This document shows, piece after piece, positions 19,258-64,000 of a DNA stretch of 64,000 nucleotides. Origin of the DNA: Prostheceraeus crozeri (Eukaryota > Platyhelminthes > Polycladida > Euryleptidae); the NCBI GenBank assembly GCA_907163375.1, contig CAJQUW010007085.1, positions 124,001-188,000 of the forward strand, read 5' to 3'. The notes beneath the pieces are model-generated. The model did not search any database. It had not been told where the DNA came from and saw only the letters and a list, made by a program, of their open reading frames with translations. Each line of letters starts with the position of its first letter. The stretch's first letter is position 1. The translations under genes were made by a program, and so were the position numbers.

Positions 19258-19259
19258 TC

Positions 19260-23131: not shown

Positions 23132-23148
23132 TTATCATTATTATTATT

Positions 23149-23177
23149 GGAACTAACGTTTCGGGAATGAAATTCCC
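23149..23177 (-). repeat. Double-hairpin element at protease 3' end
   Basis: GGAAC-TAAC-GTTTC followed directly by GGGAAT-GAA-ATTCCC. The minus-strand protease frame ends inside it (GISFPKR, then TAG at 23153-23155). Confidence 0.7.
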
Positions 23178-23627: not shown

Positions 23628-23837
23628 TTTATAATAAAAAAAATTCTTATAGGGACCCCTAGAAGTCAGAAGGGGTGGTATTGATTTAAAACTGTTCTCT
23701 AATGATGACTTTCCTTACTACTTTTCGATTTTGAAATGATTTAATTTAATCTAAATTAAAACGTTACATTTGTAGGGAATCGGTTTATTAGCAGAGTTAG
23801 TGTTTCGTACATCTTTAATCAACTGCAATCCATTTCT

Positions 23838-23876
23838 CATCAATAGGTGAAAATTCTTTATTCCCAATTGATTGCA
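23838..23876 (-). pseudogene. Duplicated protease fragment next to the right TIR
   Basis: About 37 bp (TCATCAATAGGTGAAAATTC onward) nearly repeats 23515-23553, the part of the protease encoding GIKNFH and MRDE. It abuts the inner edge of the right TIR, suggesting that the TIR end was once joined to a protease gene and then duplicated or recombined. Confidence 0.55.
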
Positions 23877-24339
23877 CATGTATGTGAATAAAAATATTTT
23901 CTAAAGATGGAAATGTGTTTTCATTTTGCATTAACCGCTACCTGTTAAAGAAATATTATTAGACACATAAGTTTAGTTATCTCATATTTTAAAAACCTGA
24001 AAATGGATTTAAAAGACGTTTTTTAAAAATACTAACTTTTATGATTTTCGGTGTCCTTGAACGGTCATGATTTTCAAGGTAAAAATTGTAATTCTCAAAT
24101 TTTGAGATTCTTAACTTTTATGATTTTCGGTGTCCTTGAACGGTCATGATTTTAAGGGGGGGTGAAAGTGTCATAATCACAAATTTGAGATTTTGAAAAA
24201 TTTGAAAAATTGGGTATTTTTAAAAACGGTTTTTTTCTTCATAACCTGAAAAAGGGTTCAAATTCATGAATTTATGTCGTTTTTAAAGATACTATTTTTT
24301 TGAATTTTATGGTGTCCTGGAACGGTCTTTTGCCCATTA
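23872..24339 (-). repeat. Right terminal inverted repeat of Polinton
   Basis: It is the inverted copy of 6523-7100, 468 bp long, ending GCCCATTA. It differs from the left copy by scattered substitutions and by lacking the 110-bp internal duplication. Its inner edge abuts a protease-gene fragment. Confidence 0.95.
24050..24327 (-). promoter_or_regulatory. Three iterated terminal motifs in right TIR
   Basis: Mirror copies of the left set, at 24050-24066, 24129-24145 and 24311-24327, all reading GACCGTTC(A/C)AGGACACC on the minus strand. Spacing to the end is shorter than on the left because the right TIR lacks the 110-bp duplication. Confidence 0.55.
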
Positions 24340-42600: not shown

Positions 42601-43811
42601 GGGGTCAATCCGAAAGCCTTGATCCAATCTCTACCACATAGATAAGGTCCTTCATTCTTGACAACTGCACACTGTAGATACAACTTTTGAGAGTTGTAGA
42701 AAACTGTGGACTTAAATACCCCGACTACATGCAAACTATGACCCGTGTAAGCTCTCAATCCTGAATTGGAAGTTTCCAACTTAACTCCCTCGAATTTTTC
42801 ACGGAACGTTTTCTCAGTCAAAATGGTGGCCGGAGTACCAGTGTCTATCTCAAACTTGATAGGAACTTCATTCAGTAAGATAGTAGCCTCATAAGGTGCA
42901 ACGTGATTCACTTGATCTTCTGGAGTAACTGAGTATAAATCATAGAAAATTGGGTCAGACTGACTTGTGGACCGGTCAGGTGTATCTGTGTTAACACTGT
43001 CAACTGCATTAACAGAACTCTTGGAATTTGCATTAACAGAATTCTTGGAATTTGTATTTTGAGAACTTTTGCAGACTGAACTAATATGACCCTTCTTATT
43101 GCACTTGAAACACGTACTGTTAATGGCTGGACATGTCTTACAGTTATGCTTTTTTCCGCACCTGTAACACGGACTCCACTTCGTATCCTGAGGCTGCTTC
43201 TTCTGAAAATTGTTGTTAGATTTGTCCTTTTTGTAGAATTTGGAGTTGTGAACTTTATTGACACTGGTTCCAGTGACACCTGACTTCAAAATCTCAGCAT
43301 CACGAGTGGCAGTTTCAATCGCTAAACAAATCTCAAGAGCATTATTAAAATCCAAAGTTGTATATTCAGTGGTCAACAACCTTCTCTGCATGTGCTCATT
43401 ATTTATGCCTGATACCAAACGATCTCTCAGCATAGAATCCAAAGTACTACCATACTCGCAATGCTCACTTACTTCCCTCAAAAGAGCAATGTATTCAGAA
43501 ACCGTTTGGTTAGACTGCCTAACACAAGTACTGAATTTCCACCTTTGTACAATGGGTGACGGTTTCGGAGAAAAATGCTTGGACAAAGCAACAAGAATAT
43601 CAGCCAAAGCAACATCAGCAGGCTTATTAGGGGTCAGAAGACTTCTCAACAACCCGCAAGTCTTCGGTCCAACACAACTAAGAAAGTCGGCTCTCTTAAT
43701 AGATTCATCCGTGATACCGCTAGCCAATATGTATTGAATAAATCGCTCAGAGTACTGCTCCCAATTTTCTTTTTCAATCAAGAACTCACTAGACTGGTAT
43801 GTAACCGACAT
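39695..43811 (-). pseudogene. Gag-Pol of the Ty3-type element, interrupted
   Basis: The first frame 43811-41457 (784 codons) is a gag-pro-pol fusion. Gag covers residues 1-215. Two zinc knuckles lie at about 215-247 (CYRCGKKHNC and CFKCNKKGHISSVC). The protease DTG is at 323-325, the reverse transcriptase with YQDD at 598-601, and RNase H starts near 735. At 41450, in an A run, the frame changes and RNase H continues in 41445-40393, followed by the integrase HHCC finger and catalytic D (IHIDFAG), D (VSDNGPCF) and E (GLAEKA). A TAA at 40393 interrupts before FLFHYRNTPQSTTG. The C-terminal tail, with two further stops or shifts, ends at RRSSRVKKPRQIMN (39695). No separate envelope gene. Confidence 0.92.
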
Positions 43812-43967
43812 TATCCAAAAAAACGTAGAAGCACCACGTTGTACTGAGACAAAGTTCAGAAATTGCTTTCACTTAATGGTTAATATGGTAAATAAGTTGA
43901 ATTATTATTGGAAAGCAACTCTTGGATACGTATTGCGTGAGATTCAATGCTCAACGTCGCCAATTAA

Positions 43968-46530: not shown

Positions 46531-47629
46531 CATTATCATTTATGCGTCTTTCGCCCCCCCCCTTGACAAATTAAATTAATCGCTCTAGGGGGTTAAATGA
46601 CATGTCAAAAATATAGCTTATAATTGCATTTTGCTTTATACATTTCCAGAACAAGTTTTTAAACCTTAGTCACTCTCTATCAACATAAGTGTTATCGTCT
46701 ACAATCTAAAGCGTAGCAGCTGAGCCTTTAACTGGCCATATAGCCACATAATGTGGACATATTGAACATGGGCACAAATCTTAATAAGGTTCACTTTAGA
46801 AAGGTTTAACAGGCGCTTCCCAACCAATAAGTCATTGAAGAGTTTCAACCAGTCATACGCAGAAGAACGAGTTGCTGATTGCATTCAGTGAATTTTGTGT
46901 TTATTGTTATTAGAATAAGCACACAACACACTTTTCAGAAATGTCAAAATCAATTGTTGTCTTTCCTTGGAATGCTTTTGCTATTTTATGATCCATCAAA
47001 AAGTCCATCGACTGGAAATGAAAGATATTCAAAGTCATTAAAGTGTCGATGAATGGTAAAAATGCATTTGAATAGAGCTGCTTTGATTTTGCTTAAACGT
47101 GGAAATTGTGAATAAAATACTGTGATAGTTGAAAATTCAGTGGGTGGAGCCCACATGTATCATATATTATTATACTACTATTCTAGAAAAAAGAGTAGCA
47201 TTGGATTAATCCAAAATATGCATGAAATATCAAAAGGTTTCATTGGGATGGCGTGCACACCGAGATAAATGGCTTTGTCTGTGGGTATGGGTATAGAGAT
47301 GACATTTTCTAATACTGATGGTCACGCTCAGAACTAGTCCATAGGGTCAAAAGGATCAATTTTCTATTGAGCGTAATCCAAATTTGAGCTTGAATTCTGA
47401 CAACGACAGCTCATGTGTTCCCTAATGCAACTTTCAGTAAGCACTGCGCGCTTGGCCAATCATGTGAGCCAAAGGGAGTCGAATTTCTCCACTTCTCTCT
47501 AACACTGCATGCAATGGCTGATATAGAATAACTAGGGCAACAGCGACAGACGATTCCACCTCTGTGGGCGCACAACACTATTAAAATGACCCAGAATCAC
47601 TTAAGAAATGCATAATTCATGAAACTTAC
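46531..47629. other. Downstream of the micro-exon array
   Basis: Around 47297-47345 a segment (ATACTGATGGTCACGCT) resembles 51790-51830 in the duplicated module, so the repeat-built locus may extend this far. No further exon seen. Confidence 0.4.
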
Positions 47630-47674
47630 ATGGAAGCGACTTCTATTTTCTTTTGTCAGCCGCAATAGGAACAT
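47630..47674 (-). CDS. Micro-exon with stop (likely terminal exon)
   Basis: A 45-nt phase-1 exon between GATTTCAG and GTAAGTTTC. It reads VPIAADKRK then TAG (47643-47645). It is the only exon of the series with a stop in the shared frame, so it probably ends the protein, although a donor follows. Confidence 0.5.
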
Positions 47675-47937
47675 CTGAAATCACAACGATCATCTTCACA
47701 TAAAATCAACCAATAAATTCAATTTTGACGAAGTCAATCCTATGATTGAAAGGCAATTTTTCCGTACACACATGAACATGTCCACCGACGTCACTGTAAT
47801 CCTCTACTTGAAAAGACAGAATTAATGCAATCAGCGAATTACAGAGAAAAGGGAAAAAACAGAAAGCCCTTCGGAATATTTTTGAGAGTTAATGAGAGTC
47901 TGCATTTATATCTAAAATATGCGTTTGTGGAACTTAC

Positions 47938-47979
47938 TTATTGTACCCTTCACACTTCTTCTGCGTCTCTTTCTGGTAA
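47938..47979 (-). CDS. Micro-exon, basic RKRRRR peptide
   Basis: A 42-nt phase-1 exon between TTTTCTAG and GTAAGT. It encodes TRKRRRRSVKGTI, a strongly basic stretch that could be a proprotein-convertase site or a nuclear signal. No other exon in the array is similar. Confidence 0.5.
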
Positions 47980-48284
47980 CTAGAAAATAGAAGAATAATA
48001 GGGAAATTGATTTTGTGAACGGCGATTGCCAGTGCACGATCCTAGATGATCACACTAAAACATCAATTTGAATTTTATGAATTAGAAGGATATTCTACAG
48101 ATAAGTTTTTGAATTCATTGTATGAATATTTCTAGATTTCTCGAATTAAATCTTGTCACTATTTAGATGATCGACTTGATGAAAAATATGACAGGGTTAC
48201 ATAATTAACTTCTCACGTATCAAGCCGCACAAGATATAGAATTGTAGTCAGATTGTAGTCATGACAGAATTGCTTCAAACTTAC

Positions 48285-48332
48285 CGCTAGATGCATCTAC
48301 GCCTGGTACAGGGTATTGTACTTCCGCGTCAC
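48285..48332 (-). CDS. Micro-exon, DAEVQYPVPGVDASS
   Basis: A 48-nt phase-1 exon, acceptor AATTTCAG, donor GTAAGTTTG. The adjoining intron (ATAGAATTGTAGTCAGATTG ... CAAACTTAC) recurs beside most other exons, showing duplication of an exon-intron module. Confidence 0.6.
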
Positions 48333-48427
48333 CTGAAATTGAAATAATTGACTTTTCACGTATCAAGCCGCACAAGATATAGAATTGTAGTCAGATTGTA
48401 GTCATGACAGAATTGCATCAAACTTAC

Positions 48428-48466
48428 CGCGACTTCTTAAGCTAGCTGGGCCTAAAACCGGAGCAC
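48428..48466 (-). CDS. Micro-exon, APVLGPASLRSR
   Basis: A 39-nt phase-1 exon, acceptor AATTGCAG, donor GTAAGTTTG. Same size class and APV start as the exon at 49613. Confidence 0.6.
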
Positions 48467-48571
48467 CTGCAATTGCAATAATGTAATATAAATATTAAAA
48501 AATAATGTGCTTTATTTTAGAATGACAGACGCATACCAATCACAAATAGTCAAGGGAGAAGATAAGAACGC

Positions 48572-49081
48572 GAACACGTGGACGTGCACTTAAAGGACAT
48601 CCAGCTGTCAGGGTAGTAGAGGGACATCGTGGTAGAACTCAACCGTTTCTCTTGCCACATCCCCAACACATGACCTTGCTCATTTAAGCATGATTGGATG
48701 CGGAATGACGACTGACAGTCATTTCTGCGACTATTTGTCTGATGTCAGCAAACTTCTTTTTGAACAGGAATTTACCCTTCTAATAGGCAGTACATCATCG
48801 CATTCTGAAGATGAGCTTCGACATCATACCCCAAGCATCCGACGCTTACCATGAAATAGTCCATTCCTAAATGTCACAGAATACGCGAATTCAGCGCTGA
48901 AATCCGATGTCAAGTGGGATCTTACAAATCCTGATGTCCAAAGACAGATAAGTGACAATCAAATGGCAAGAGACGCTGGGAAGACACTCCACATTGCAGA
49001 CACAGAATGGACATTTTGAAATCGTTCATTCAACAGAACATCAGAGTTATAACATCCCAAAAGGTTCAGAAGTGGTTTTGA
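48572..49081 (+). pseudogene. IS630/Tc1-mariner transposase relic, C-terminal part
   Basis: Resembles the last half of 54742-55753, starting ARTRGRALKGHPAVRVVEG and ending at the same QKW-F-stop. Stops and shifts throughout. It is the older copy, lying between two groups of micro-exons on the opposite strand. Confidence 0.65.
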
Positions 49082-49469
49082 CACGTGCTTGGCTACACAA
49101 ACTGATACTTTGCGAATCTGACATTTTTCACTCAGCTTTCCTTGTCTGATAGACTTTTATCCTACTTTCAGTGTTCTCATGTTCAAATATAATGCCTTTG
49201 AACAACACAGATATTTTCTTAGATGAAAAATCGGAAATTGGTATAACGAAAATGAATGCACTGAAATCTATGAAATTTGCATTTATCGTAGACATAGGCA
49301 TTTTGATGGAAAATGTCAAAAGAAACTAAATTCACTTATTCAATAATAGAATACAAAAAGGCATATCAATATATATTGGGACTATATTTCTAAATTTCTC
49401 TATTTAAATTTGTTCACCATTTAGATGATCGACTTGATGAAACGCATGACAGGGTTACATAAAGCTTAC

Positions 49470-49517
49470 CGGTAATTATATCTACGTCTGGTCCCGGGGG
49501 TAGTAGTTTCATATCAG
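49470..49517 (-). CDS. Micro-exon, DMKLLPPGPDVDIIT
   Basis: A 48-nt phase-1 exon, acceptor CATTTCAG, donor GTAAGC. Diverged duplicates at 56143 and 61154 have lost the donor. Confidence 0.6.
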
Positions 49518-49612
49518 CTGAAATGACAATAATTTACTTCTCACGTATCAAACAGCTCAAGTTATAGAATTGTAGTCAGATTGTAGGCATGACAGAATTG
49601 CACCAAACTTAC

Positions 49613-49651
49613 CGCTACTGATTATTTCACCTGGTCTTGCAACTGGAGCAC
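49613..49651 (-). CDS. Micro-exon, APVARPGEIISS
   Basis: A 39-nt phase-1 exon, acceptor GTTTTCAG, donor GTAAGTTTG. Its duplicate at 61603 differs at six positions, changing five amino acids with no silent change. Confidence 0.65.
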
Positions 49652-49746
49652 CTGAAAACGCAATAGAAATGTTTAATAATAATATGCTTTATTTTAGAAT
49701 GACAGACGCATAACGATTACAAATAGTCAAGGGAGAAGATAAGAAG

Positions 49747-51230
49747 TCAATGGGAGGTAATATCACTATGAGTCATTCGATGGATAAAGTTCTTTCCGTT
49801 GACCGCATTGATGGTCGTTCTCAGCAGTCGATGCAGCCTATGTCTGAGGTTCCTGCGATCTGTTGTTTGCGGTGGCAGAAGTCGATGAAAGCATGTGTCC
49901 CCGGTGCTGTAACAGTTTGTAAAACAGCCTTTTTTCACTTTTCTCAACTATTAACCTTGTGTCCGTCATTTGGGTGTAGCCGTGCCTCACTCCTCGCTTC
50001 AAATGTTGTTCTATCCTCCTCCTTTCGTTGGCGTTCGTGAATCCCCACCAGCTGGGAACAGCAGACTTAATCTTGATGGTAATCACTGTTGTTAGACTTT
50101 CCTTTTCCTTTTCTTTTATCTTCTTTTCTGTTATAATTATGTTGCCATGTAAAAGTACTGTATCATAGATTAGTCACATGCACGCTACGTGTCGTGAATA
50201 AATATATCATTGAAATATATACGAGTATAATTGTTGAGTACAGCTGATGGAGCATACGGTATGTTGCTTTGCTCCTCGACTTTTCATTATCTTCATTGCG
50301 TATATGCCCTTGTTGCATTTTTTCCAGATCCTACTCACGTGGGCATCCATATGTAGTTTTTGTGTGAAGAAGACACCGAGGATTATGATCTCTGAAGTAC
50401 TTCTGATGTTAGGAAGATGTGGCGACTCCGCGTTGGCTCTGGATCTTTGAAAGATTATTTCTAGAGATTTTGTATCGTTGAGGTTGAGGTTCTTGTTTAA
50501 TGCCCACTCCTTTATATGTTGCAACTCGACTGTTGTTGTATCGAAATTGTCCGGCGGTACAATCAGATATCTATCATCAGCATATTTGATTATGATGTTG
50601 CCTACGATGGTTGGTTTCAGGTCCCATACAATCGTGGAGAATGCATTTGGTCCAACTGTCGATCCTTGAACCACGCCTGCATTGATGTCTGTTGCATGCG
50701 ACATTTACCCAAACATTTTAGTTGCCTGCTTACGTGACGTACGTATAACAGTCAGCAATCCAATTGCAGATTTGGTCGGGAATTTTCAAATTGTTAAGCT
50801 TTTCATGCAACTTATACCTTCTCGCTGTGTCGAAAACTTTCGAGAAGTCTATAGTGACCATTAGAGCAGAGGTGCGATTTTCTAAAATAGCCATTACTTC
50901 AATTAGAATTGCTATCAAGGCTTCTGCGGTGCCTCCTGTTGGTTGGAAAGCGTATTGATCATTGTACATTTGTTCCTCGTCATTGCTTGATTTATGATTT
51001 TTCTAGCAACAATTTTTTCGGAAATTCGTGACAAAATTGGTGTTAGCACTGTTTAGCACTGATTAACTTTGTGATTGGTTCGCATATGTAATCAGCTGCT
51101 AGGCGAAGGAACCATTATGCTATTATATGATCACTGACAGAGATGTTTACTTCACTTTCATTGGAGCCATGTATGTTTCAGATGCGCCGATGTATTCAGT
51201 GATGTTTACTGGTCCTTCACGCAAAATTTC
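49747..51230 (-). pseudogene. Non-LTR retrotransposon reverse transcriptase, truncated copy 1
   Basis: Read right to left. PILSRISEKIVARKIINQ is followed by a finger-palm block (QYAFQPTGGTAEALIAIL, TIDFSKVFDTARR), then GVVQGSTVGPNAFS and the catalytic KYADDRYLIVP (about 50590), then thumb and a C-terminal HxLLPP-type tail near 49850. Several frames are needed. The 5' part, with endonuclease and ORF1, is missing. Jockey/CR1-like by eye; clade not resolved. It sits inside an intron of the micro-exon gene and was duplicated with it. Confidence 0.8.
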
Positions 51231-51431
51231 TTCGTATGATTTATCGGTTGACACTTGAGTGTAATTCATGATGTCATTCTTCGCACTCTTCACAATATTC
51301 TCTTAAACTTTTGTCTAAACACATTGGTATGTGAATCAAATTCAAATGAGGTTTGCGACAATTGCACTGGAAAATGCATATACAAATGCTACCTGAAAAA
51401 TGGCATAATTTAAAATTAGAAATAAACTTGC

Positions 51432-51473
51432 CTGTTTCTGCTGCAGGGTCAAATGGAGGGTCAATCATTTTAC
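51432..51473 (-). CDS. Micro-exon, KMIDPPFDPAAET
   Basis: A 42-nt phase-1 exon, acceptor CATTTCAG, donor GCAAGT (a GC-AG intron). Identical in unit B (56440); diverged copy at 63246. Confidence 0.65.
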
Positions 51474-51568
51474 CTGAAATGACAATGATTAACTCCTTAC
51501 ACATCAAGCAGCTCAAGTTATAGAATTGCAGTCATATTGTAGGCATGACAGAATTGCATCAAACTTAC

Positions 51569-51601
51569 TGTAAAAGTCATATGGTACTTCATCAGAAGCA
51601 C
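51569..51601 (-). CDS. Micro-exon, ASDEVPYDFY
   Basis: A 33-nt phase-1 exon, acceptor AATTTCAG, donor GTAAGTTTG. Three identical copies in the window (also 56577, 63383). Confidence 0.65.
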
Positions 51602-51860
51602 CTGAAATTGCAATAATGAAGTCAGAGCTTTGACATCAATCTCTATGTCATCACTTGCTGAAGACTTCTGACAGATCGAAGAGATCGATAAACAATAAAA
51701 AAAATCATTCATGTTGCAAAAAGTCATGCAGCTGTGCTCACCACAGAGATAATTTGCTTAGTCTGCGTTGTTTGGTCTAGAGACATTTTATAATACTGAT
51801 GGTCACGCTTTGAGCGTACATAGGGTCTACAAGTGAATACATAAATTACATAAAGCTTAC

Positions 51861-51911
51861 CTGCACAGCAAGATGTTTCGCGACTCTTGAAGTCGAATTA
51901 CCCGTTTGATT
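51861..51911 (-). other. Possible exon, not phase-compatible
   Basis: Bounded by CATGTAG and GTAAGC, but its phase-1 reading hits TAA. The related copy near 63672 could use an internal AG yet then ends in another phase. It may be a decayed exon, a 5' non-coding exon or chance. Confidence 0.25.
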
Positions 51912-52055
51912 CTACATGAACAAGTAAACGCATGCTTTGAAGCAAGATCTGCAATCCGTGATATTATGGTGCATGGAGAGCAGTGGCGCGGTCTCCGTGC
52001 CTGCGAGGTCTTCACCACATACCCAAAAATAATCATCAACATTCATGAAAGAAAA

Positions 52056-52885
52056 AAGTTCAATTTCCATTGCATAGAATTGCAATTGATTATAATTACT
52101 AATTACATCTTTATCAATGTAATTGACTACGCTTACAAATTTCTACGTCTTTTTTCAATTGCATTTCAATTACTTTGCAATTAATTACTCTAGATAACTT
52201 CCGGCATTGCATTACCTGTTTTCCCAACTTTTATCTTTCATGGCGTATATACAAGGTCAATCATTAGTTGCCACTGCTTGAAATACAGACCACGCTTATA
52301 GCATTGATACAAAATTGTCACATTTTCATCTCCCATCCCCACCAAGTGCTTTCGCGTTACATCTGTGCTACGATTCAAACTGGAGATGCATCATTCTGTG
52401 AAAGCGACACTTGTGACTCCTTACGATTGCAATTACAACTCCGTTAAGGTCAAAATTGATTGAAAGATTCAAATTGTGGCTTCTTGAAGAGTTTATGTGC
52501 ATCTCATTCAACGAAGGGAAATTAATAGCGCTAGTCTTCTGATTTCTGTTTTCCGATCAGCAATTAGAGGGGAAGGAATATCACATTATATCACATCATT
52601 ATCACATTAAGGAATTTAGATTTTGACAATCCACTTCGTAGTACATTTCTTCGACAATTTTATGGCAGTTGTGCACCTGATGCATATCTAAGCATTTTAC
52701 CGCATTATCGACGAGGAGGTGCGGCTATTTAAAATGTGCGCTAATGAACAGAGTTGACCGTAGAGTAATTGCAATTACATCTCAATTACATGGCTAAAAA
52801 TGTTGCTGATTACAATTACAAATTACTCGTCAGAAAATGTAATTGGCTACAATTACTAACTACAGCAATTGTAATCACAAATTCA
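52056..52885. repeat. AATTAC-rich inverted arrays, unit A
   Basis: 52056-52196 and 52762-52885 are dense in AATTGCAATTACA-type words in inverted arrangement, enclosing about 560 bp without coding capacity. They may be the subterminal arrays of a small DNA transposon. Repeated at 57064-57893 and from 63868 to the window end. Confidence 0.55.
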
Positions 52886-54549
52886 ATTTCAACGCAAGTC
52901 TGATGAAAATAAACGCATAAACCAGAAGATCTATAAATCGCAAGCTTTGCGTCCTTGCATCTTGCTGTAGATATCGTTGTATCGTTTTATTTGACGTGTA
53001 AAGCAGATTATTGCCCACGCGGCAGATAATATTTAGGCTACTCCAATGCACTGGAAGGAGCGTAATTATGAGTGCTCTTGTCCTGCTTTAGACTAGATCT
53101 GTGATTTTCACGATTGATCAGGTTAAATTTCTATTCAAATACTCTTGATAATCATAGACATTTCAGTCACAATCTGCCCTTGATCATCATAGCACGTCGG
53201 CAAATAAAATTCTCTACACAACTCATGCATGAGATTGCTTCATCATAGCATTCGAACTCGTTGGATATAAGTGGCCATCACCTTGCGTGCTCGGGCATTT
53301 AAGATATCTAACTCGTGGAATACTATAAAGAAGCAATCATGCACGAGTTGCGAAAATAACTATACCTTTTTGCATTCTATTTCTAAATAAGTGAAATCGA
53401 TTTCCGCTGAGCAGAATATTCATTTATTTATCATGTCATATTTCCAGATATTCCTTCTCAGTCAGCTCATAGAAATCATTCATGCAATAGAGATGTATTC
53501 ATAGTGCATTCGATATCGTCATTCTGAAATTCAAATTCTGGCAGATTACGTGTACAGTTGCTGGATATCATCACTTTGAATGTCACTTTTTTGTCTAATC
53601 GGCAGCATGTCTGACGTACATGTAGAAAGCATCATGTTGTCTTATGTTAATACATAAAGTCAGAGAAATTAACAATACGATAGAAAGTCCTAGAATGGAA
53701 ATTGCATGAAAATTATGGCACACTCCAGGGGAACTTAGTTGGGGCAAAATGCAAATTCTACGATCTGGCGTCCATGTTTTCTGATTGGCATTTATGATTA
53801 TCAAGCCAATTAGTGATCTGGATTGTTGCCCAGTGTCCAAAGATCATATAAACAAAAGTAATAATGAATTTACAAAATACTGCGCTGACAGGATGACAAA
53901 GAAGGAAATCCTATAAATCGTTCTCTACGTCTATCATTTTGAAATATCGCTCCTATAATCTATCAAGAGTATAATCAGACACATATGCAGCTTGTCATGT
54001 CGATTTACAGAACATATATTATACTCCAGCTTGAAATCAGAGGCCAAGAAATATTTTGCTTTATTCATTTTACTTTAAATGGCTTCCCCATTCATTATAT
54101 TTCAACAACTTTCAAAATCTTTGCATGCTTTCAAATATCAGCTTCCAAAATATCATCACACTATATCACACAAGTCACTCAATAATTAATTGAAGATTTC
54201 CAGCGACATTCTATTTACCTGAGTGATGATTGTAGGCAAAGAAGCCTTCAGTGTGCTTATTCCAGAATAGCTCTAGGTATCTATATCGCTTGAAGGAGAA
54301 ATTATCCAATAGTTAGATTTTTTATCTGTGAATTCTTGATATGCTCTTACAACCGGTACACCGACCACTTTCAATTATGATTATGTGAGTCAATTTTTAT
54401 TTCGTTTTCCAGCATTGAAAAAATTGGATGATAGTTGTAAATGACTGCTACAAATAGACACAGTATAATAATCCATGGAATAGTAGCCTATTTCAGATGA
54501 AACAATGCCACCATCTCACTTAAAATTCTCTGCATGATAATCCTGTAAT
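52886..54549. other. Non-coding part of unit A
   Basis: No gene supported. Open frames such as 53595-53840 have no recognisable features. No phase-1 micro-exon found here. Confidence 0.4.
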
Positions 54550-54741
54550 TTGCTGTCAACAACTTCCACAACTAATTTGGCAAATATCTTGACTATGATG
54601 CAATGTTTTAGATCGAATCTGATCTATGTACAAACCATAGATTTTCCATGTACCATCATTGTACATAAGCAAGATATCAAACTTCCATTCTTTCATAGTG
54701 TACCATTATCTACTTCTATGCATAAAGTGAAGATGTACGTA

Positions 54742-55753
54742 ATGACACCAGACGAAGAAAATATAATGAGTATAGCGAAAATTGATCGAGACCGTCTGAT
54801 AGCAGCCTGGCAATCCGATTCAGACTACTTACAGTTAACAGATCAGCTAGGCATTCATTGGTATTCACTGCTAGAAGCACAACAGCCAAATTCTTGAAAG
54901 ACGGAAAGCGAACAACTGATAAGAAGAGCGGAAGAACTTATACAATGGCAAATGAATCGATGGTAGACGCAATGGTGAGATGCATTGAGGAGAAGTCCAC
55001 CATCACCCTGACTGAAATCAAAAAGAAAGTCCAGTAGGAGCTTCCATCAAGTCCTACTGTTTGCGTCCAAACCAAAAGTCGGTGTGTGGACGGAAGACTG
55101 ATCACCATGAAGCAGTTAAGATCCTCGCCTGTCCCATGGAACGAACCCAGTATCAAACTAGAAAGAAAGGCTTTCATGCAATGGCTGGTCGACAGTGGCA
55201 TGCAGACATCAGTCTTTCAAGATGAAACTGGCTTCAATCTGTGAATTGCGAGAACACGTGGACGTGCACTTAAAGAACATCCAACTGTCAGGGTAGTAGA
55301 GGGACAGCGTGGTAGAACTCAACCGTTTCTTTGGCCGTATCCCCAACACATGGCCTTGTTCATTTCAGCATGATTGGATACGGAATGACTACCAGTCATT
55401 TCTGCGACTTTTTGTCTGAAGTCAGCGAACTTCTTTCTAAAGAAGAATTTAACCTTCTTATAGGCAGTACATCATCGCATTCTGAAGATGAGCTTCGACA
55501 TCATACCCCAAGCATCCGACGCTTACCATGATATAGTCCATTCCTAAATGTCACAGAATACGCGAATTCAGCGCTGAAATCCGATGTCAAGAGAGATCTT
55601 GCAAATCCTGATGTCCAAAGACAGATAAGTGACAATCAAATGGCAAGAGACGCTGGGAAGACACTCCACAGACACAGAATGGACATTTTGAAATCGCTCA
55701 TTCAACAGAACATCAGCGTTATAACGGCCCAAAAAGTTCAGAAGTGGTTTTGA
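54742..55753 (+). pseudogene. IS630/Tc1-mariner superfamily transposase relic (unit A)
   Basis: Starts MTPDEENIMSIAKIDRDR with a helix-turn-helix-like N-terminus, then VFQDETGFNL (first catalytic D), RTRGRALKEHPTVRVVEGQRG, YGMTTSHFCDFL, LLIGSTSSHSED, where the second catalytic Asp is not present, and PFLNVTEYANSALK with the third (E) residue. A frame change after about residue 50, and stops near 55036 and 55241, show decay. Family members are about 340 residues and cut at TA. It lies opposite to the micro-exon gene. Confidence 0.75.
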
Positions 55754-56142
55754 CACGTGCTTGGCTACGCAAACAGATACTTTGCCGAATCTGACATTTT
55801 TCACTGAACTTTCCTTGCCTTATAGGCTTTTATCCTACTTTCAGTGCTCTCATGTTCAAATAAAATGCCTTTGAACAGCATAGATATTTTCTTAGATGAA
55901 AAATCGGAAATTAGAATGACGAAAATTAATGCACTGAAATCTATGAAATTTGCCATATCGTAGACATAGGCATTTTGATAGGAAAAGTCAAAAGAAACTG
56001 AATTCACTTATTCAATAATAGAATACAAAAAGGTATATTAATATATATTAGGAATATATTTCTAAATTTCTCTATTCAAAATTTTTTCACTATTTAGATG
56101 ATCGACTTGATGAAACGCATGACAGGATTACATAAAGCTTTC

Positions 56143-56190
56143 CGGTAAATAGATCCACGTCTGGTCCCGGGGGTAGTAGTTTCATATCAG
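56143..56190 (-). pseudogene. Micro-exon with destroyed donor
   Basis: Copy of 49470-49517 reading DMKLLPPGPDVDLFT. The donor GT is now GA, so it should be skipped or retained with its intron. Confidence 0.6.
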
Positions 56191-56439
56191 CTGAAGTGAC
56201 AGTAATTAACTTCTCACGTGTCAAACAGCTCAAGTTTCTTCGTATGATTTATCGGTTGACACTTGAGTGTAATTCATGATGTCATTCTTCGCACTCTTCA
56301 CAATATTCTCTTAAACTTTTGTCTAAACACATTGGTATGTGAATCAAATTCAAATGAGGTTTGCGACAATTGCACTGGAAAATGCATATACAAATGCTAC
56401 CTGAAAAATGGCATAATTTAAAATTAGAAATAAACTTGC

Positions 56440-56481
56440 CTGTTTCTGCTGCAGGGTCAAATGGAGGGTCAATCATTTTAC
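56440..56481 (-). CDS. Micro-exon, KMIDPPFDPAAET (unit B)
   Basis: Identical to 51432-51473, with the same GC donor and acceptor. Confidence 0.6.
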
Positions 56482-56576
56482 CTGAAATGACAATGATTAA
56501 CTCCTTACACATCAAGCAGCTCAAGTTATAGAATTGCAGTCATATTGTAGGCATGACAGAATTGCATCAAACTTAC

Positions 56577-56609
56577 TGTAAAAGTCATATGGTACTTCAT
56601 CAGAAGCAC
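56577..56609 (-). CDS. Micro-exon, ASDEVPYDFY (unit B)
   Basis: Identical to 51569-51601, with the same splice sites. Confidence 0.6.
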
Positions 56610-57063
56610 CTGAAATTGCAATAATGAAGTCAGAGCTTTGACATCAATCTCTATGTCATCACTTGCTGAAGACTTCTGACAGATCGAAGAGATCGATAAA
56701 CAATAAAAAAAATCATTCATGTTGCAAAAAGTCATGCAGCTGTGCTCACCACAGAGATAATTTGCTTAGTCTGCGTTGTTTGGTCTAGAGACATTTTATA
56801 ATACTGATGGTCACGCTTTGAGCGTACATAGGGTCTACAAGTGAATACATAAATTACATAAAGCTTACCTGCACAGCAAGATGTTTCGCGACTCTTGAAG
56901 TCGAATTACCCGTTTGATTCTACATGAACAAGTAAACGCATGCTTTGAAGCAAGATCTGCAATCCGTGATATTATGGTGCATGGAGAGCAGTGGCGCGGT
57001 CTCCGTGCCTGCGAGGTCTTCACCACATACCCAAAAATAATCATCAACATTCATGAAAGAAAA

Positions 57064-57893
57064 AAGTTCAATTTCCATTGCATAGAATTGCAATTGATTA
57101 TAATTACTAATTACATCTTTATCAATGTAATTGACTACGCTTACAAATTTCTACGTCTTTTTTCAATTGCATTTCAATTACTTTGCAATTAATTACTCTA
57201 GATAACTTCCGGCATTGCATTACCTGTTTTCCCAACTTTTATCTTTCATGGCGTATATACAAGGTCAATCATTAGTTGCCACTGCTTGAAATACAGACCA
57301 CGCTTATAGCATTGATACAAAATTGTCACATTTTCATCTCCCATCCCCACCAAGTGCTTTCGCGTTACATCTGTGCTACGATTCAAACTGGAGATGCATC
57401 ATTCTGTGAAAGCGACACTTGTGACTCCTTACGATTGCAATTACAACTCCGTTAAGGTCAAAATTGATTGAAAGATTCAAATTGTGGCTTCTTGAAGAGT
57501 TTATGTGCATCTCATTCAACGAAGGGAAATTAATAGCGCTAGTCTTCTGATTTCTGTTTTCCGATCAGCAATTAGAGGGGAAGGAATATCACATTATATC
57601 ACATCATTATCACATTAAGGAATTTAGATTTTGACAATCCACTTCGTAGTACATTTCTTCGACAATTTTATGGCAGTTGTGCACCTGATGCATATCTAAG
57701 CATTTTACCGCATTATCGACGAGGAGGTGCGGCTATTTAAAATGTGCGCTAATGAACAGAGTTGACCGTAAGAGTAATTGCAATTACATCTCAATTACAT
57801 GGCTAAAAATGTTGCTGATTACAATTACAAATTACTCGTCAGAAAATGTAATTGGCTACAATTACTAACTACAGCAATTGTAATCACAAATTC
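57064..57893. repeat. AATTAC-rich inverted arrays, unit B
   Basis: Same structure as 52056-52885, with a one-base insertion near 57772. Confidence 0.55.
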
Positions 57894-59752
57894 AATTTCA
57901 ACGCAAGTCTGATGAAAATAAACGCATAAACCAGAAGATCTATAAAATCGCAAGCTTTGCGTCCTTGCATCTTGCTGTAGATATCGTTGTATCGTTTTAT
58001 TTGACGTGTAAAGCAGATTATTGCCCACGCGGCAGATAATATTTAGGCTACTCCAATGCACTGGAAGGAGCGTAATTATGAGTGCTCTTGTCCTGCTTTA
58101 GACTAGATCTGTGATTTTCACGATTGATCAGGTTAAATTTCTATTCAAATACTCTTGATAATCATAGACATTTCAGTCACAATCTGCCCTTGATCATCAT
58201 AGCACGTCGGCAAATAAAATTCTCTACACAACTCATGCATGAGATTGCTTCATCATAGCATTCGAACTCGTTGGATATAAGTGGCCATCACCTTGCGTGC
58301 TCGGGCATTTAAGATATCTAACTCGTGGAATACTATAAAGAAGCAATCATGCACGAGTTGCGAAAATAACTATACCTTTTTGCATTCTATTTCTAAATAA
58401 GTGAAATCGATTTCCGCTGAGCAGAATATTCATTTATTTATCATGTCATATTTCCAGATATTCCTTCTCAGTCAGCTCATAGAAATCATTCATGCAATAG
58501 AGATGTATTCATAGTGCATTCGATATCGTCATTCTGAAATTCAAATTCTGGCAGATTACGTGTACAGTTGCTGGATATCATCACTTTGAATGTCACTTTT
58601 TTGTCTAATCGGCAGCATGTCTGACGTACATGTAGAAAGCATCATGTTGTCTTATGTTAATACATAAAGTCAGAGAAATTAACAATACGATAGAAAGTCC
58701 TAGAATGGAAATTGCATGAAAATTATGGCATACTCCAGGGGAACTTAGTTGGGGCAAAATGCAAATTCTACGATCTGGCGTCCATGTTTTCTGATTGGCA
58801 TTTATGATTATCAAGCCAATTAGTGATCTGGATTGTTGCCCAGTGTCCAAAGATCATATAAACAAAAGTAATAATGAATTTACAAAATACTGCGCTGACA
58901 GGATGACAAAGAAGGAAATCCTATAAATCGTTCTCTACGTCTATCATTTTGAAATATCGCTCCTATAATCTATCAAGAGTATAATCAGACACATATGCAG
59001 CTTGTCATGTCGATTTACAGAACATATATTATACTCCAGCTTGAAATCAGAGGCCAAGAAATATTTTGCTTTATTCATTTTACTTTAAATGGCTTCCCCA
59101 TTCATTATATTTCAACAACTTTCAAAATCTTTGCATGCTTTCAAATATCAGCTTCCAAAATATCATCACACTATATCACACAAGTCACTCAATAATTAAT
59201 TGAAGATTTCCAGCGACATTCTATTTACCTGAGTGATGATTGTAGGCAAAGAAGCCTTCAGTGTGCTTATTCCAGAATAGCTCTAGGTATCTATATCGCT
59301 TGAAGGAGAAATTATCCAATAGTTAGATTTTTTATCTGTGAATTCTTGATATGCTCTTACAACCGGTACACCGACCACTTTCAATTATGATTATGTGAGT
59401 CAATTTTTATTTCGTTTTCCAGCATTGAAAAAATTGGATGATAGTTGTAAATGACTGCTACAAATAGACACAGTATAATAATCCATGGAATAGTAGCCTA
59501 TTTCAGATGAAACAATGCCACCATCTCACTTAAAATTCTCTGCATGATAATCCTGTAATTTGCTGTCAACAACTTCCACAACTAATTTGGCAAATATCTT
59601 GACTATGATGCAATGTTTTTAGATCGAATCTGATCTATGTACAAACCATAGATTTTCCATGTACCATCATTGTACATAAGCAAGATATCAAACTTCCATT
59701 CTTTCATAGTGTACCATTATCTACTTCTATGCATAAAGTGAAGATGTACGTA

Positions 59753-60764
59753 ATGACACCAGACGAAGAAAATATAATGAGTATAGCGAAAATTGATCGA
59801 GACCGTCTGATAGCAGCCTGGCAATCCGATTCAGACTACTTACAGTTAACAGATCAGCTAGGCATTCATTGGTATTCACTGCTAGAAGCACAACAGCCAA
59901 ATTCTTGAAAGACGGAAAGCGAACAACTGATAAGAAGAGCGGAAGAACTTATACAATGGCAAATGAATCGATGGTAGACGCAATGGTGAGATGCATTGAG
60001 GAGAAGTCCACCATCACCCTGACTGAAATCAAAAAGAAAGTCCAGTAGGAGCTTCCATCAAGTCCTACTGTTTGCGTCCAAACCATAAGTCGGTGTGTGG
60101 ACGGAAGACTGATCACCATGAAGCAGTTAAGATCCTCGCCTGTCCCATGGAACGAACCCAGTATCAAACTAGAAAGAAAGGCTTTCATGCAATGGCTGGT
60201 CGACAGTGGCATGCAGACATCAGTCTTTCAAGATGAAACTGGCTTCAATCTGTGAATTGCGAGAACACGTGGACGTGCACTTAAAGAACATCCAACTGTC
60301 AGGGTAGTAGAGGGACAGCGTGGTAGAACTCAACCGTTTCTTTGGCCGTATCCCCAACACATGGCCTTGTTCATTTCAGCATGATTGGATACGGAATGAC
60401 TACCAGTCATTTCTGCGACTTTTTGTCTGAAGTCAGCGAACTTCTTTCTAAAGAAGAATTTAACCTTCTTATAGGCAGTACATCATCGCATTCTGAAGAT
60501 GAGCTTCGACATCATACCCCACGCATCCGACGCTTACCATGATATAGTCCATTCCTAAATGTCACAGAATACGCGAATTCAGCGCTGAAATCCGATGTCA
60601 AGAGAGATCTTGCAAATCCTGATGTCCAAAGACAGATAAGTGACAATCAAATGGCAAGAGACGCTGGGAAGACACTCCACAGACACAGAATGGACATTTT
60701 GAAATCGCTCATTCAACAGAACATCAGCGTTATAACAGCCCAAAAAGTTCAGAAGTGGTTTTGA
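59753..60764 (+). pseudogene. IS630/Tc1-mariner transposase relic (unit B)
   Basis: Near-identical to 54742-55753, with the same stops and frame change, so it was already dead when the segment was duplicated. Changes such as Lys to Met-type codons near 60086 are private to this copy. Confidence 0.75.
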
Positions 60765-61153
60765 CACGTGCTTGGCTACGCAAACAGATACTTTGCCGAA
60801 TCTGACATTTTTCACTGAACTTTCCTTGCCTTATAGGCTTTTATCCTACTTTCAGTGCTCTCATGTTCAAATAAAATGCCTTTGAACAGCATAGATATTT
60901 TCTTAGATGAAAAATCGGAAATTAGAATGACGAAAATTAATGCACTGAAATCTATGAAATTTGCCATATCGTAGACATAGGCATTTTGATAGGAAAAGTC
61001 AAAAGAAACTGAATTCACTTATTCAATAATAGAATACAAAAAGGTATATTAATATATATTAGGAATATATTTCTAAATTTCTCTATTCAAAATTTTTTCA
61101 CTATTTAGATGATCGACTTGATGAAACGCATGACAGGATTACATAAAGCTTTC

Positions 61154-61201
61154 CGGTAAATAGATCCACGTCTGGTCCCGGGGGTAGTAGTTTCATATCA
61201 G
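61154..61201 (-). pseudogene. Micro-exon with destroyed donor (unit B)
   Basis: Same as 56143-56190: DMKLLPPGPDVDLFT with GA in place of the donor GT. The defect predates the A/B duplication. Confidence 0.6.
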
Positions 61202-61468
61202 CTGAAGTGACAGTAATTAACTTCTCACGTGTCAAACAGCTCAAGTTTCTTCGTATGATTTATCGGTTGACACTTGAGTGTAATTCATGATGTCATTCTT
61301 CGCACTCTTCACAGTATTCTCCTAAACTTTTGTCTAAACACATTGGTATGTGAATCAAATTCAAGTTGAGGTTTGCGACAGTTGCACTGGAAAATGCATA
61401 TACAAATGCTACCTGAAAAATGGCATAATTTAAAATTAGAAATATAAGCAGAATTGCATAAAACTTGC

Positions 61469-61507
61469 CTGTTTCTCCTTCAAGGTAAAATGGTGATCTC
61501 ATTGCAC
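61469..61507 (-). CDS. Micro-exon, AMRSPFYLEGET
   Basis: A 39-nt phase-1 exon, acceptor CATTTCAG, GC donor GCAAGT. It occupies the place of the KMIDPPFDPAAET exon. The flanking intron is recognisably the same, but the exon is strongly diverged and one codon shorter. Confidence 0.65.
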
Positions 61508-61602
61508 CTGAAATGAGTATAATTAACTCCTTACATATCAAACCGCTCAAGTTATGGAATTGTAGTCAGATTGTAGGCATGACAGAATTGCATCAAACTT
61601 AC

Positions 61603-61641
61603 CGCTACTGATTATGTCACCTGGTATTGTAACTGTACTAC
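61603..61641 (-). CDS. Micro-exon, STVTIPGDIISS
   Basis: A 39-nt phase-1 exon, acceptor AATTTCAG, donor GTAAGTTTG. Duplicate of 49613-49651 with five amino-acid replacements. Confidence 0.65.
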
Positions 61642-61727
61642 CTGAAATTGCAATAAAAATAATAAATAATAATCAAAATACAAAATAAAATCAAATAATA
61701 CAAATAGTCAAGGGAGAAGATAAGAAG

Positions 61728-63040
61728 TCAATGAGAGGTAATATCACTATCAATCATTCGATGGATAAAGTTCTTTCCGTTGAGCAGTCGATGCAGCCTA
61801 TGTCTGAGGTTCCTGCGATCTGTTGTTTCCGGTGGTAAAAGTCGATGAAAGCATGTGTCCCCGGTGCTGTAATATTTTGTAGAACAGCCATTTTTTTTCA
61901 CTTTTCTCAACTATTATCCTTGCGTCCGTCATTTGGGTGTAGCCGTGCCTCACTCCTCGCTTCAGATATTGTTCTATTCTCCTCCTTTCGTTGGTGCTCG
62001 TGAATCCCCACCAGCTGGCAGTAGCAGACTTAACCTTGTTGGTAATCATTGTTGAGCACAGCTGATGGAGCATACGGTATGTTGCTTTGCTCCTCGACTT
62101 TTCATTATCTTCATTGCGTATATGCCCTTGTTGCATTTTTTCCAGATCCTACTCACGTGGGCATCCATATGTAGTTTTTGTGTGAAGAAGACACCGAGGA
62201 TTATGATCTCTGAAGTACTTCTGATGTTAGGAAGATGTGGCGACTCCGCGTTGGCTCTGGATCTTTGAAAGATTATTTCTAGAGATTTTGTATCGTTGAG
62301 GTTGAGGTTCTTGTTTAATGCCCACTCCTTTATATGTTGCAACTCGACTGTTGTTGTATCGAAATTGTCCGGCGGTACAATCAGATATCTATCATCTGCA
62401 TATTTGATTATGATGTTGCCTACGATGGTTGGTTTCAGGTCCCATACAATCGTGGAGAATGCATTTGGTCCAACTGTCGATCCTTGAACCACGCCTGCAT
62501 TGATGTCTGTTGCATGCGACATTTACCCAAACATTTTAGTTGCCTGCTTACGTGACGTACGTATAACAGTCAGCAATCCAATTGCAGATTTGGTCGGGAA
62601 TTTTCAAATTGTTAAGCTTTTCATGCAACTTATACCTTCTCGCTGTGTCGAAAACTTTCGAGAAGTCTATAGTGACCATTAGAGCAGAGGTGTGATTTTC
62701 TAAAATAGCCATTACTTCAATTAGAATTGCTATCAAGGCTTCTGCGGTGCCTCCTGTTGGTTTGAAAGCGTATTGATCATTGTACATTTGTTCCTCGTCA
62801 TTGCTTGATCTATGATTTTTCTAGCAACAATTTTTCGCAAATTCGTGACAAAATTGGTGTTAGCACTGTTTAGCACTGATTAACTTTGTGATTGGTTCGT
62901 ATATGTAATCAGCTGCTATGCGAAGGAACCATGCTATTATATGATCACTGACAGAGATGTTTACTTCACTTTCATTGGAGCCATGTATGTTTCAGATGCG
63001 CCGATGTATTCAGTGATGTTTGCTGGTCCTTCACGCAAAA
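61728..63040 (-). pseudogene. Non-LTR retrotransposon reverse transcriptase, truncated copy 2
   Basis: Duplicate of 49747-51230 with the same KYADDRYLIVP and DFSKVFDTARR blocks and the same truncation. Internal deletions are near 61780 and 62045. It is part of the second segmental duplication, not an independent insertion. Confidence 0.8.
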
Positions 63041-63245
63041 TTTCTTCGTATGATTTATCGGTTGACACTTGAGTGTAATTCATGATGTCATTCTTCGCAC
63101 TCTTCACAATATTCTCCTAAACTTTTGTCTAAACACATTGGTATATGAATCAAATTCAAATGAGGTTTGCGACAATTGCACTGGAAAATGCATATACAAA
63201 TGCTACCTGAAAAATGGCATAATTTAAAATTAGAGATAAACTTGC

Positions 63246-63287
63246 CTGATTCTCCTGGAAGGTCAAATAGAGGGTCAATCATTTTAC
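63246..63287 (-). CDS. Micro-exon, KMIDPLFDLPGES
   Basis: A 42-nt phase-1 exon, GC donor. Versus 51432 it has five substitutions, all changing the amino acid, while about 275 bp of flanking intron differ at three positions. Confidence 0.7.
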
Positions 63288-63382
63288 CTGAAATGACAAT
63301 GATTAACTCCTTACACATCAAGCAGCTCAAGTTATAGAATTGCAGTCATATTGTAGGCATGACAGAATTGCATCAAACTTAC

Positions 63383-63415
63383 TGTAAAAGTCATATGGTA
63401 CTTCATCAGAAGCAC
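63383..63415 (-). CDS. Micro-exon, ASDEVPYDFY (third copy)
   Basis: Identical to 51569-51601 and 56577-56609, with the same splice sites. The gene continues beyond the window on its 5' side. Confidence 0.6.
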
Positions 63416-63867
63416 CTGAAATTGCAATAATGTAGTCAGAGCTTTGACATCAATCTCTATGTCATCACTTGCTGAAGACTTCTGACAGATCGAAGAGATC
63501 GATAAACAATAAAAAAAATCATTCATGTTGCAAAAAGTCATGCAGCTGTGCTCACCACAGAGATAATTTGCTTAGTCTGCGTTGTTTGGTCTAGAGACAT
63601 TTTATAATACTGATGGTCACGCTTTGAGCATACATAGGGTCTACAAGTGAATACATAAATTACATAAAGCTTACCTGCGCAGCAAGATATTTCGCTACTC
63701 TTGGAGTCGAATTACCTGTTTGATTCCTAATGCACATGTAAACGCATGCTTTGAAGCAAGATCTGCAATCCGTGATACTATGGTGCATGCAGAGCAGTGG
63801 CGCGGTCTCCGTGCCTGCGAGGTCTTCACCACATACCCAAAAATAATCATCAACATTCATGAAAGAA

Positions 63868-64000
63868 AAAAGTTCAATTTCCATTGCATAGAATTGCAAT
63901 TGATTATAATTACTAATTACATCTTCATCAATGTAATTGACTACGCTTACAAATTTCTCCGTCTTTTTTCAATTGCATTTCAATTACTTTGCAATTAATT
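63868..64000. repeat. AATTAC-rich array, third copy, cut by window end
   Basis: Matches the left array of units A and B. Shows that at least a third unit begins here. Confidence 0.55.

What the first reader, a model, noticed from the sequence alone, without database searches (positions are those of the whole stretch)
47630..63415. Array of 33-48 nt phase-1 micro-exons built by repeated duplication
On the minus strand, at least 13 short segments sit between consensus acceptors (TTTCAG) and donors (GTAAGT or GCAAGT). Every length is a multiple of three (33, 39, 42, 45, 48), and every exon starts and ends in phase 1. None except the presumed last one contains a stop in that phase. Any exon could be skipped or added without changing frame. 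Adjoining introns are recognisable copies of one another. I do not recognise the peptides. The organisation recalls the micro-exon genes of schistosomes, but no homology is claimed.
Basis: partly seen in the sequence, partly recalled or inferred. Interest (0 to 1): 0.88.

Follow-up and report, generated by a model that had tools for sequence, protein, structure and literature searches.

The report
Micro-exon secreted-protein genes in polyclad flatworm
A marine polyclad flatworm appears to carry a cluster of genes for secreted proteins chopped into dozens of tiny interchangeable pieces, a layout known from schistosomes and tapeworms and proposed to be a gain of parasitic flatworms.

Summary
In detail: 13 open phase-1 cassettes plus a terminal exon lie on minus 47630-63415. 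A scan gives 15 open acceptor-donor pairs (two nested) against 0.38 in shuffles. The window lies in a 2.05-Gb genome whose COX1 is polyclad-like; Prostheceraeus crozieri is the inferred species. The genome has 8 near-full signal-exon and 7 terminal-exon matches. Phase 1 is the coding frame: 0 stops in 344 codons, against 23/371 and 57/344. Cassettes differ more than the intron between them, and non-synonymous change exceeds neutral simulation. The predicted protein has no homolog or domain. Against: many cassettes elsewhere have decayed, including 43-nt copies with stops, and no RNA could be examined. Verdict: a gene family that works like micro-exon genes of parasitic flatworms; membership is not shown.

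The parts
63383..63415 (-). C-type micro-exon, 33 nt, phase 1-1, ASDEVPYDFY; donor GTAAGT
63246..63287 (-). D-type micro-exon, 42 nt, KMIDPLFDLPGES; donor GCAAGT
61603..61641 (-). C-type micro-exon, 39 nt, STVTIPGDIISS; donor GTAAGT
61469..61507 (-). D-type micro-exon, 39 nt, AMRSPFYLEGET; donor GCAAGT
61154..61201 (-). D-type 48-nt copy, open in phase 1 but donor mutated to GAAAGC; probably skipped (inference)
56577..56609 (-). C-type micro-exon, 33 nt, identical to 63415-63383
56440..56481 (-). D-type micro-exon, 42 nt, KMIDPPFDPAAET; donor GCAAGT
56143..56190 (-). D-type 48-nt copy with donor GAAAGC; probably skipped (inference)
51569..51601 (-). C-type micro-exon, 33 nt, identical to 63415-63383
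51432..51473 (-). D-type micro-exon, 42 nt, identical to 56481-56440
49613..49651 (-). C-type micro-exon, 39 nt, APVARPGEIISS
49470..49517 (-). D-type micro-exon, 48 nt, DMKLLPPGPDVDIIT; donor GTAAGC
48428..48466 (-). C-type micro-exon, 39 nt, APVLGPASLRSR
48285..48332 (-). D-type micro-exon, 48 nt, DAEVQYPVPGVDASS
47938..47979 (-). candidate penultimate exon, 42 nt, polybasic TRKRRRRSVKGTI; open here and in the C748 203-kb gene, TGA in phase 1 in the C748 minus-strand gene
47630..47674 (-). terminal coding exon, VPIAADKRK then TAG; AADKRK-stop and a GTAAGT donor 13 nt after the stop in 5 of 5 paralogous 3' ends read
46900..47011 (-). inferred 3' UTR exon: acceptor TTTCCAG before 47011, AATAAA at 46905-46900 (ATTAAA in one of three paralogs aligned); end not fixed, not coding (1-nt indels between paralogs)
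51224..61656 (-). two successive tandem units of about 5 kb (98.7% alike) carrying C and D exons with their introns

Best explanation
The window holds the 3' part of one gene of a small clustered family of secreted-protein genes in a polyclad flatworm. SHOWN from sequence: paralogs begin with a conserved exon for a signal peptide. In two of the three read this is followed by a 9-nt exon. Then come repeated pairs of short exons (C, 33/39 nt; D, 39-48 nt), each beginning at codon position 2 and ending after position 1. They end with a conserved terminal coding exon (AADKRK-stop), followed by an inferred 3' UTR exon. Phase 1 is the selected frame. Cassettes multiply by duplication of units from 1.2 kb to 6.8 kb, and they diverge more than the intron between paired exons, with an excess of amino-acid-changing substitutions. 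INFERRED: because all intact cassettes share one phase class, any cassette can be duplicated, lost or skipped without a frameshift, so each locus can yield many isoforms of a Cys-free, Pro/Gly/Asp-rich secreted protein with a basic tail. Diversifying selection suggests a role at a contested interface, perhaps gland or epidermal secretions facing prey, predators or microbes. That role is a guess.
For: Array beyond chance. Signal exon MKLSTSLLLACFMLYIYNVE ending at a phase-1 GTAAGT in three loci; 8 near-full genomic matches at 92-100%. A 9-nt phase-1 exon TTATGCAAG. Terminal exon kept in 5 of 5 paralogous 3' ends read; 7 genomic matches. Frame control on 27 distinct exons: 0/344 stops and pN/pS 1.74 in phase 1, against 23/371 and 57/344 stops and ratios 0.78 and 0.76 in the other frames. 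In 12 disjoint pairs there were 82 non-synonymous and 14 synonymous differences; 0 of 1000 neutral simulations reached 82 at each of three transition settings. C exons differ by 27% and D exons by 34%, against 11% for the intron between them; in 8 disjoint unit pairs the D exon exceeds that intron in 8 of 8 and the C exon in 6 of 8. A chain of intact cassettes in the C748 203-kb gene reads to 197 aa without an internal stop. No homolog or domain. Flatworm COX1.
Against: No transcript data, so neither splicing nor exon skipping is observed. Decay is common. Of 31 C-type sites in the fetched loci, 6 are 43 nt with stops, 1 is 38 nt and 3 have lost the acceptor. Of 34 D-type sites, 4 have a dead donor, 1 is 38 nt, 1 is a fragment that I dropped and 1 more has a weak donor. 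The outer flanks (40 nt before C, 50 nt after D) differ by 22% and 25%, not far below the exons. In 2 of 8 disjoint pairs the C exon is more alike than its intron. The penultimate exon has a stop in one paralog. The window's own contig ends before a signal exon is reached. One of the three signal-exon loci read lacks the 9-nt exon, and one further signal-exon copy (C6788) is a relic. The substitution tests rest on short, related exons.
Confidence: 0.72

Rival explanations
1. A real secreted repeat protein, but spliced constitutively: the micro-exons are only the repeat units of an ordinary fast-evolving structural or mucus-like protein, and isoform diversity plays no part.
For: Near-identical repeated units such as the C748 1.18-kb array (97.9-99.75% alike among the five units compared). 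Intact cassettes carry usable splice sites. No skipping has been observed.
Against: Dead splice sites and out-of-frame copies lie between intact cassettes, so some skipping must occur if those genes make a full-length protein (inference).
Confidence: 0.2
2. A dying or non-functional tandem repeat: the splice-flanked segments are remnants of a former gene.
For: Decayed cassettes and a relic 5' end; transposon fragments in the introns.
Against: 0 stops in 344 phase-1 codons in 27 distinct exons and excess amino-acid-changing substitutions. Signal and terminal exon regions are kept at 91-100% in the genome.
Confidence: 0.05
3. A peptide-precursor gene: a short peptide (for example SVKGTINVPIAAD) is cut out between RKRRRR and the final KRK, and the cassettes form a variable spacer.
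For: Polybasic TRKRRRRSVKGTI exon followed by ...AADKRK-stop.
Against: The polybasic exon has a stop in one paralog and an exact-pattern search did not find it in two others. Selection acts on the cassettes.
Confidence: 0.06
4. Chance splice-like motifs inside a satellite or transposon.
For: The array is a tandem repeat with transposon-like fragments in its introns.
Against: 15 open pairs against 0.38 in shuffles; frame-specific selection; a full gene outline in paralogs.
Confidence: 0.02

Closest known systems
Micro-exon genes (MEGs) of schistosomes and tapeworms (Berriman 2009 and DeMarco 2010 known to me only as cited; passages or sections of PMC7653826, PMC5825161, PMC4350168, PMC4413821 seen)
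   Same: 5' signal-peptide exon; most of the coding sequence in short symmetric exons; no domain; tandem gene clusters; transposons in and around the genes; raised non-synonymous divergence; same phylum.
   Different: A polyclad, not a parasitic class. Most cassettes are 39-48 nt, above the 6-36 bp usually quoted. No sequence similarity found. Cassettes come as repeated pairs. Alternative splicing not shown.
Bicycle genes of aphids (passages of PMC9168663 seen)
   Same: Many small internal exons that start at codon position 2; N-terminal signal; extreme sequence divergence.
   Different: No cysteine in the predicted mature chain, hence no CYC motif. Different phylum; in my view a convergent plan.
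Venom-type multigene families with introns more conserved than exons (recalled, from no call)
   Same: Exons diverge faster than introns, with an excess of amino-acid-changing substitutions.
   Different: Here the variable unit is a 33-48-nt cassette, and the predicted protein is Cys-free.

Membership tests
Micro-exon genes (MEGs) of parasitic flatworms | Operational rule of PMC7653826: micro-exon = under 70 nt and divisible by 3; at least 7 exons, at least half micro-exons, a run of at least 4 | tested here: met
   On predicted exons only: the C748 203-kb model has 13 internal exons of 9-48 nt, all divisible by 3. The model passes over non-intact cassettes that lie between them.
Micro-exon genes (MEGs) of parasitic flatworms | About 80% of coding region in symmetric exons of 6 to 36 bp (PMC5825161) | tested here: not met
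   In that model the internal micro-exons make up 501 of 594 coding nt, but only 42 nt lie in exons of 36 nt or less (9 and 33 nt).
Micro-exon genes (MEGs) of parasitic flatworms | Signal peptide in the first exon | tested here: met
   MKLSTSLLLACFMLYIYNVE, judged by hydropathy only; 8 near-full genomic matches of the exon region.
Micro-exon genes (MEGs) of parasitic flatworms | No known protein domain | tested here: met
   One model tested: 0 Pfam families at E up to 1.
Micro-exon genes (MEGs) of parasitic flatworms | Transcripts that differ by skipped micro-exons | not testable with these tools
   No RNA data at hand.
Micro-exon genes (MEGs) of parasitic flatworms | Sequence relation to a described MEG family | tested here: not met
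   One model: 4410 candidates sharing words, none at E <= 1 in a 5.8-billion-protein database. MEGs diverge fast, so absence is weak evidence.
Micro-exon genes (MEGs) of parasitic flatworms | Raised dN/dS and clustered duplicates (PMC4350168) | tested here: met
   pN/pS 1.74 over all same-length pairs; 82 vs 14 differences in disjoint pairs, about 1.78; all 47 listed cassette matches on three contigs. These are cassette paralogs within one genome, not orthologs between species.
Aphid bicycle genes | Internal exons starting at codon position 2 | tested here: met
   All intact cassettes.
Aphid bicycle genes | CYC motif | tested here: not met
   No cysteine in the mature part of the two chains examined.

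The most novel reading that the evidence does not exclude
Micro-exon-gene organisation is not an invention of parasitic flatworms. It was present, or easily evolved, in free-living flatworms such as polyclads, so schistosome and tapeworm MEGs were recruited from an older system for making variable secreted proteins.
Probability: 0.35. Interest if true: 0.85.

Novelty: new variant of a known kind. Interest (0 to 1): 0.72.

Why it matters
Micro-exon gene organisation has been listed among proposed gains of the parasitic flatworms. Laumer et al. [quoted passage not shown] A family with this plan in a polyclad makes the question testable: is the plan shared by descent, or repeatedly evolved wherever a secreted protein is pushed to diversify? 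The five searches that paired the phrase with free-living flatworms or their groups listed no report in a free-living flatworm that I could see from titles and abstract starts. Of the papers they listed I saw passages of four (PMC4413821, PMC4398949, PMC7653826, PMC12998952). One search listed 12 of 13 papers. The library holds open-licence papers only.

Tried and rejected
Exon-like segment near 47802 ('TAGAGGATTACAGTG...'): rejected as coding because two paralogs have TAA in phase 1 and a 1-nt indel. The last exon (acceptor before 47011) as coding: rejected, frameshift between paralogs; kept as 3' UTR. Other scan hits inside the tandem units (47, 38, 35, 85 and 89 nt) were set aside because none is a multiple of three. 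Rfam (gathering threshold) and tRNA scans of the window found nothing. A search with the window's Ty3-type polymerase to name the organism gave 2309 hits among 7989 scored candidates; the named rows among the 120 listed are fish, a sea star and a sponge, so it was not diagnostic. The genome paper was opened by a DOI that I recalled for another polyclad species; it is for Prostheceraeus crozieri. The species name is inferred from size and order: 2,048,925,868 bases in 14,165 contigs here against 2,065,465,794 in 17,074 scaffolds in PMC9469890 (abstract and part 1 of 3 of the main section seen). The best named COX1 relatives are acotyleans while P. crozieri is a cotylean, so COX1 supports the order only.

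Rows dropped before counts. C hits under 80 bits (2 of 33) and D hits under 36.5 bits were not used. One hit labelled D was in truth a C site and was relabelled; one 26-nt D fragment was dropped; the lengths of 4 D copies (dead donor) and 3 C copies (lost acceptor) were set to the homologous boundaries by hand. The frame and pN/pS tests use 27 distinct exons of lengths with partners (33, 39 C; 39, 42, 48 D); they leave out 3 distinct C exons (38, 43, 43 nt), one 38-nt D and one 45-nt D, and they include copies with dead splice sites. The 197-aa model chains only intact cassettes of that locus. The terminal-exon count was by a pattern that demands the AADKRK codons, but the number found equals the five 3' ends that the flank profile found independently.


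Full report
What is there. A strict scan of minus 47,001-64,000 finds 21 acceptor-donor pairs of 24-60 nt, of which 16 are multiples of three and 15 are open in phase 1. Those 15 are 13 exons plus two nested shorter readings, and the 16th is the terminal exon. The plus strand gives 2, 0 and 0; the other 47 kb gives 15, 5, 4 and 6, 3, 2 on its two strands; and 300 dinucleotide shuffles average 2.45, 0.90 and 0.38 (maximum 4 open). The exons are not independent: the 13 have 10 distinct sequences and lie in tandem units, two of which are 98.7% alike over 5.4 kb.

Two exon kinds alternate. C-type exons (33 or 39 nt) mostly follow TTGCAATTTCAG or TTGCAATTGCAG. D-type exons (39, 42, 45 or 48 nt) follow after an intron of roughly 95 nt, mostly ending TTGTCATTTCAG. 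In the window all 6 C-type sites are intact. Of 8 D-type sites 6 are intact, and 2 have the donor changed to GAAAGC, as do the two other copies of that exon read on the contig.

Where it comes from. The window is G000:C5893:124001-188000 of a 2.05-Gb genome of 14,165 contigs. The genome's COX1 reads sensibly with AAA as Asn (the DRNFNTTFF stretch). Of the 120 rows listed, the closest named relatives are Pseudostylochus intermedius (76%) and Stylochus stellae (75%), both polyclads; unnamed records reach 97%. Prostheceraeus crozieri, described as a free-living polyclad, has a published 2.07-Gb assembly (PMC9469890: abstract and part 1 of 3 of the main section seen). I take it as the likely source; that is inference. 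A listing also calls the coral-eating polyclad Prosthiostomum acroporae parasitic (listing only), so 'free-living' depends on the species being right.

The rest of the gene. The contig ends at 207,597 without a signal exon, but paralogs on contig C748 have one. Upstream of their arrays lies a 61-nt exon, MKLSTSLLLACFMLYIYNVE, ending one base into a codon at GTAAGT (three loci). In two of the three it is followed by a 9-nt exon TTATGCAAG, phase 1 at both ends; in the third the likeness breaks off inside it. An ATAAAT motif, TATAAAT in one locus, sits 53 nt upstream of the ATG in all three. Downstream, the exon at 47674-47630 is kept in 5 of 5 paralogous 3' ends read, always ending AADKRK-stop, with GTAAGT 13 nt after the stop. 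The next acceptor (before 47011) is followed by AATAAA, or ATTAAA in one of three paralogs aligned, but the sequence is frameshifted between paralogs, so I read it as 3' UTR. A chain of the intact cassettes of the C748 203-kb gene, from ATG to stop, gives 197 aa: an acidic, Cys-free mature chain with a basic tail.

How many. The C-D unit has 47 matches (a lower bound, 40 of 49 candidates scored), all on C5893, C748 and C7533. The signal-exon region has 8 near-full matches (C748 four, C7533 three, C6788 one) plus a short partial one. The terminal-exon region has 7. Six loci have both in the right order, going by coordinates. C6788 is a relic: its 9-nt exon has lost its donor and carries a stop, and no C or D exon was found in the 9.2 kb read after it.

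The frame is real and under selection. In 27 distinct same-length exons, phase 1 has 0 stops in 344 codons and pN/pS 1.74; the other two frames have 23 of 371 and 57 of 344 stops and ratios 0.78 and 0.76. In 12 disjoint pairs there are 82 non-synonymous and 14 synonymous differences. Neutral simulations with the same number of changes average 72.3, 72.1 and 68.7 non-synonymous at three transition settings, and 0 of 1000 reached 82 at any of them. Among 16 representative units the intron between C and D differs by 11%, C exons by 27%, D exons by 34%; the 40 nt before C and the 50 nt after D differ by 22% and 25%. So the clear contrast is with the C-D intron, less so with the outer flanks. In 8 disjoint unit pairs the D exon exceeds that intron in 8 and the C exon in 6; in the other two the C exon is identical and it is the dead 43-nt form. 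In those two pairs the flanks differ by 2-5% and the D exons by 31-39%. Five strongly diverged D exons still align better than shuffles (z 2.4 to 8.6 over 10 pairs), so they diverged rather than being replaced.

Against it. Outside the window the pattern often fails. Of 31 C sites read in all, 6 are 43 nt with stops, 1 is 38 nt and 3 have lost the acceptor AG. Of 34 D sites, 4 have the dead donor, 1 is 38 nt and 1 is a fragment; one more has a weak donor GTAATC. The penultimate polybasic exon has a stop in one paralog. No RNA could be examined. That reading is inference.

Mechanism. With one phase class throughout the intact exons, cassettes can be duplicated, lost or skipped without a frameshift. 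Shown: duplication, loss and diversification of cassettes. Inferred: skipping in mRNA, and a role of the resulting protein mixture at a contested interface. The predicted protein has no relative found (4410 word-sharing candidates, none at E <= 1), no Pfam domain and no PDB match.

Known relatives of the plan. It meets the operational MEG rule of PMC7653826 (passages seen) on predicted exons. It does not meet the narrower 6-36 bp size range of PMC5825161 (passages seen), and no sequence kinship was found. I therefore say it works like a MEG and do not file it as one. Aphid bicycle genes share exons that start at codon position 2 (PMC9168663, passages seen) but have a CYC motif that is absent here. 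PMC4350168 (abstract, introduction and part 1 of 3 of the results seen) reports, for schistosome MEGs, species-specific duplication, transposon enrichment and high dN/dS; the cluster, the transposon-like fragments and the excess of amino-acid changes here are parallels, though I made no enrichment test.

Noticed in passing
window 6672-24300: Polinton/Maverick-like element: terminal inverted repeats of about 430 bp (97.9% alike), type-B DNA polymerase and integrase matches, GC 23-30% in 8-24 kb against 32-41% elsewhere in the window. Described only.
   Followed up: partly
window 40393-43868: Ty3-type retroelement polyprotein in two overlapping frames (reverse transcriptase, RNase H, integrase); best-scoring relatives 50% identical over 66% and 51% over 99% of the query.
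   Followed up: partly
window 29379-32623: Two ORFs of what looks like a DNA transposon, one matching DUF1258.
   Followed up: no
window 50207-50704 and 62046-62522, minus strand: Near-identical reverse-transcriptase-like ORFs inside introns of the micro-exon gene, within a stretch 98% alike; the first matches Pfam RVT_1 at 25.4 bits, below the cut-off of 29.6.
   Followed up: partly
L011-L013 (C748:312873-318727 and 324668-336004): Two micro-exon genes stand head to head as an inverted duplication, in pieces 92-96% alike, including both signal exons.
   Followed up: partly
L010-L011 (C748:306458-312720): Six C-D pairs in a regular 1.18-kb tandem array; the five units compared are 97.9-99.75% alike.
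   Followed up: yes
L026:1501-2847 (C6227:15936-17282): Mitochondrial COX1 whose open frame extends well upstream of the matched part; the 97% relative is 594 aa long against 516 and 518 in the two named polyclads.
   Followed up: no
contig C748, 132336-132378, 143129-143171, 223644-223686, 224804-224846, 227308-227350, 232405-232447: Six C-type copies share one 43-nt out-of-frame version (five identical, one with two changes), while D exons beside them differ by up to 39%. Why the dead exon is the conserved one is unexplained; recent spread by duplication is the simplest reading.
   Followed up: partly
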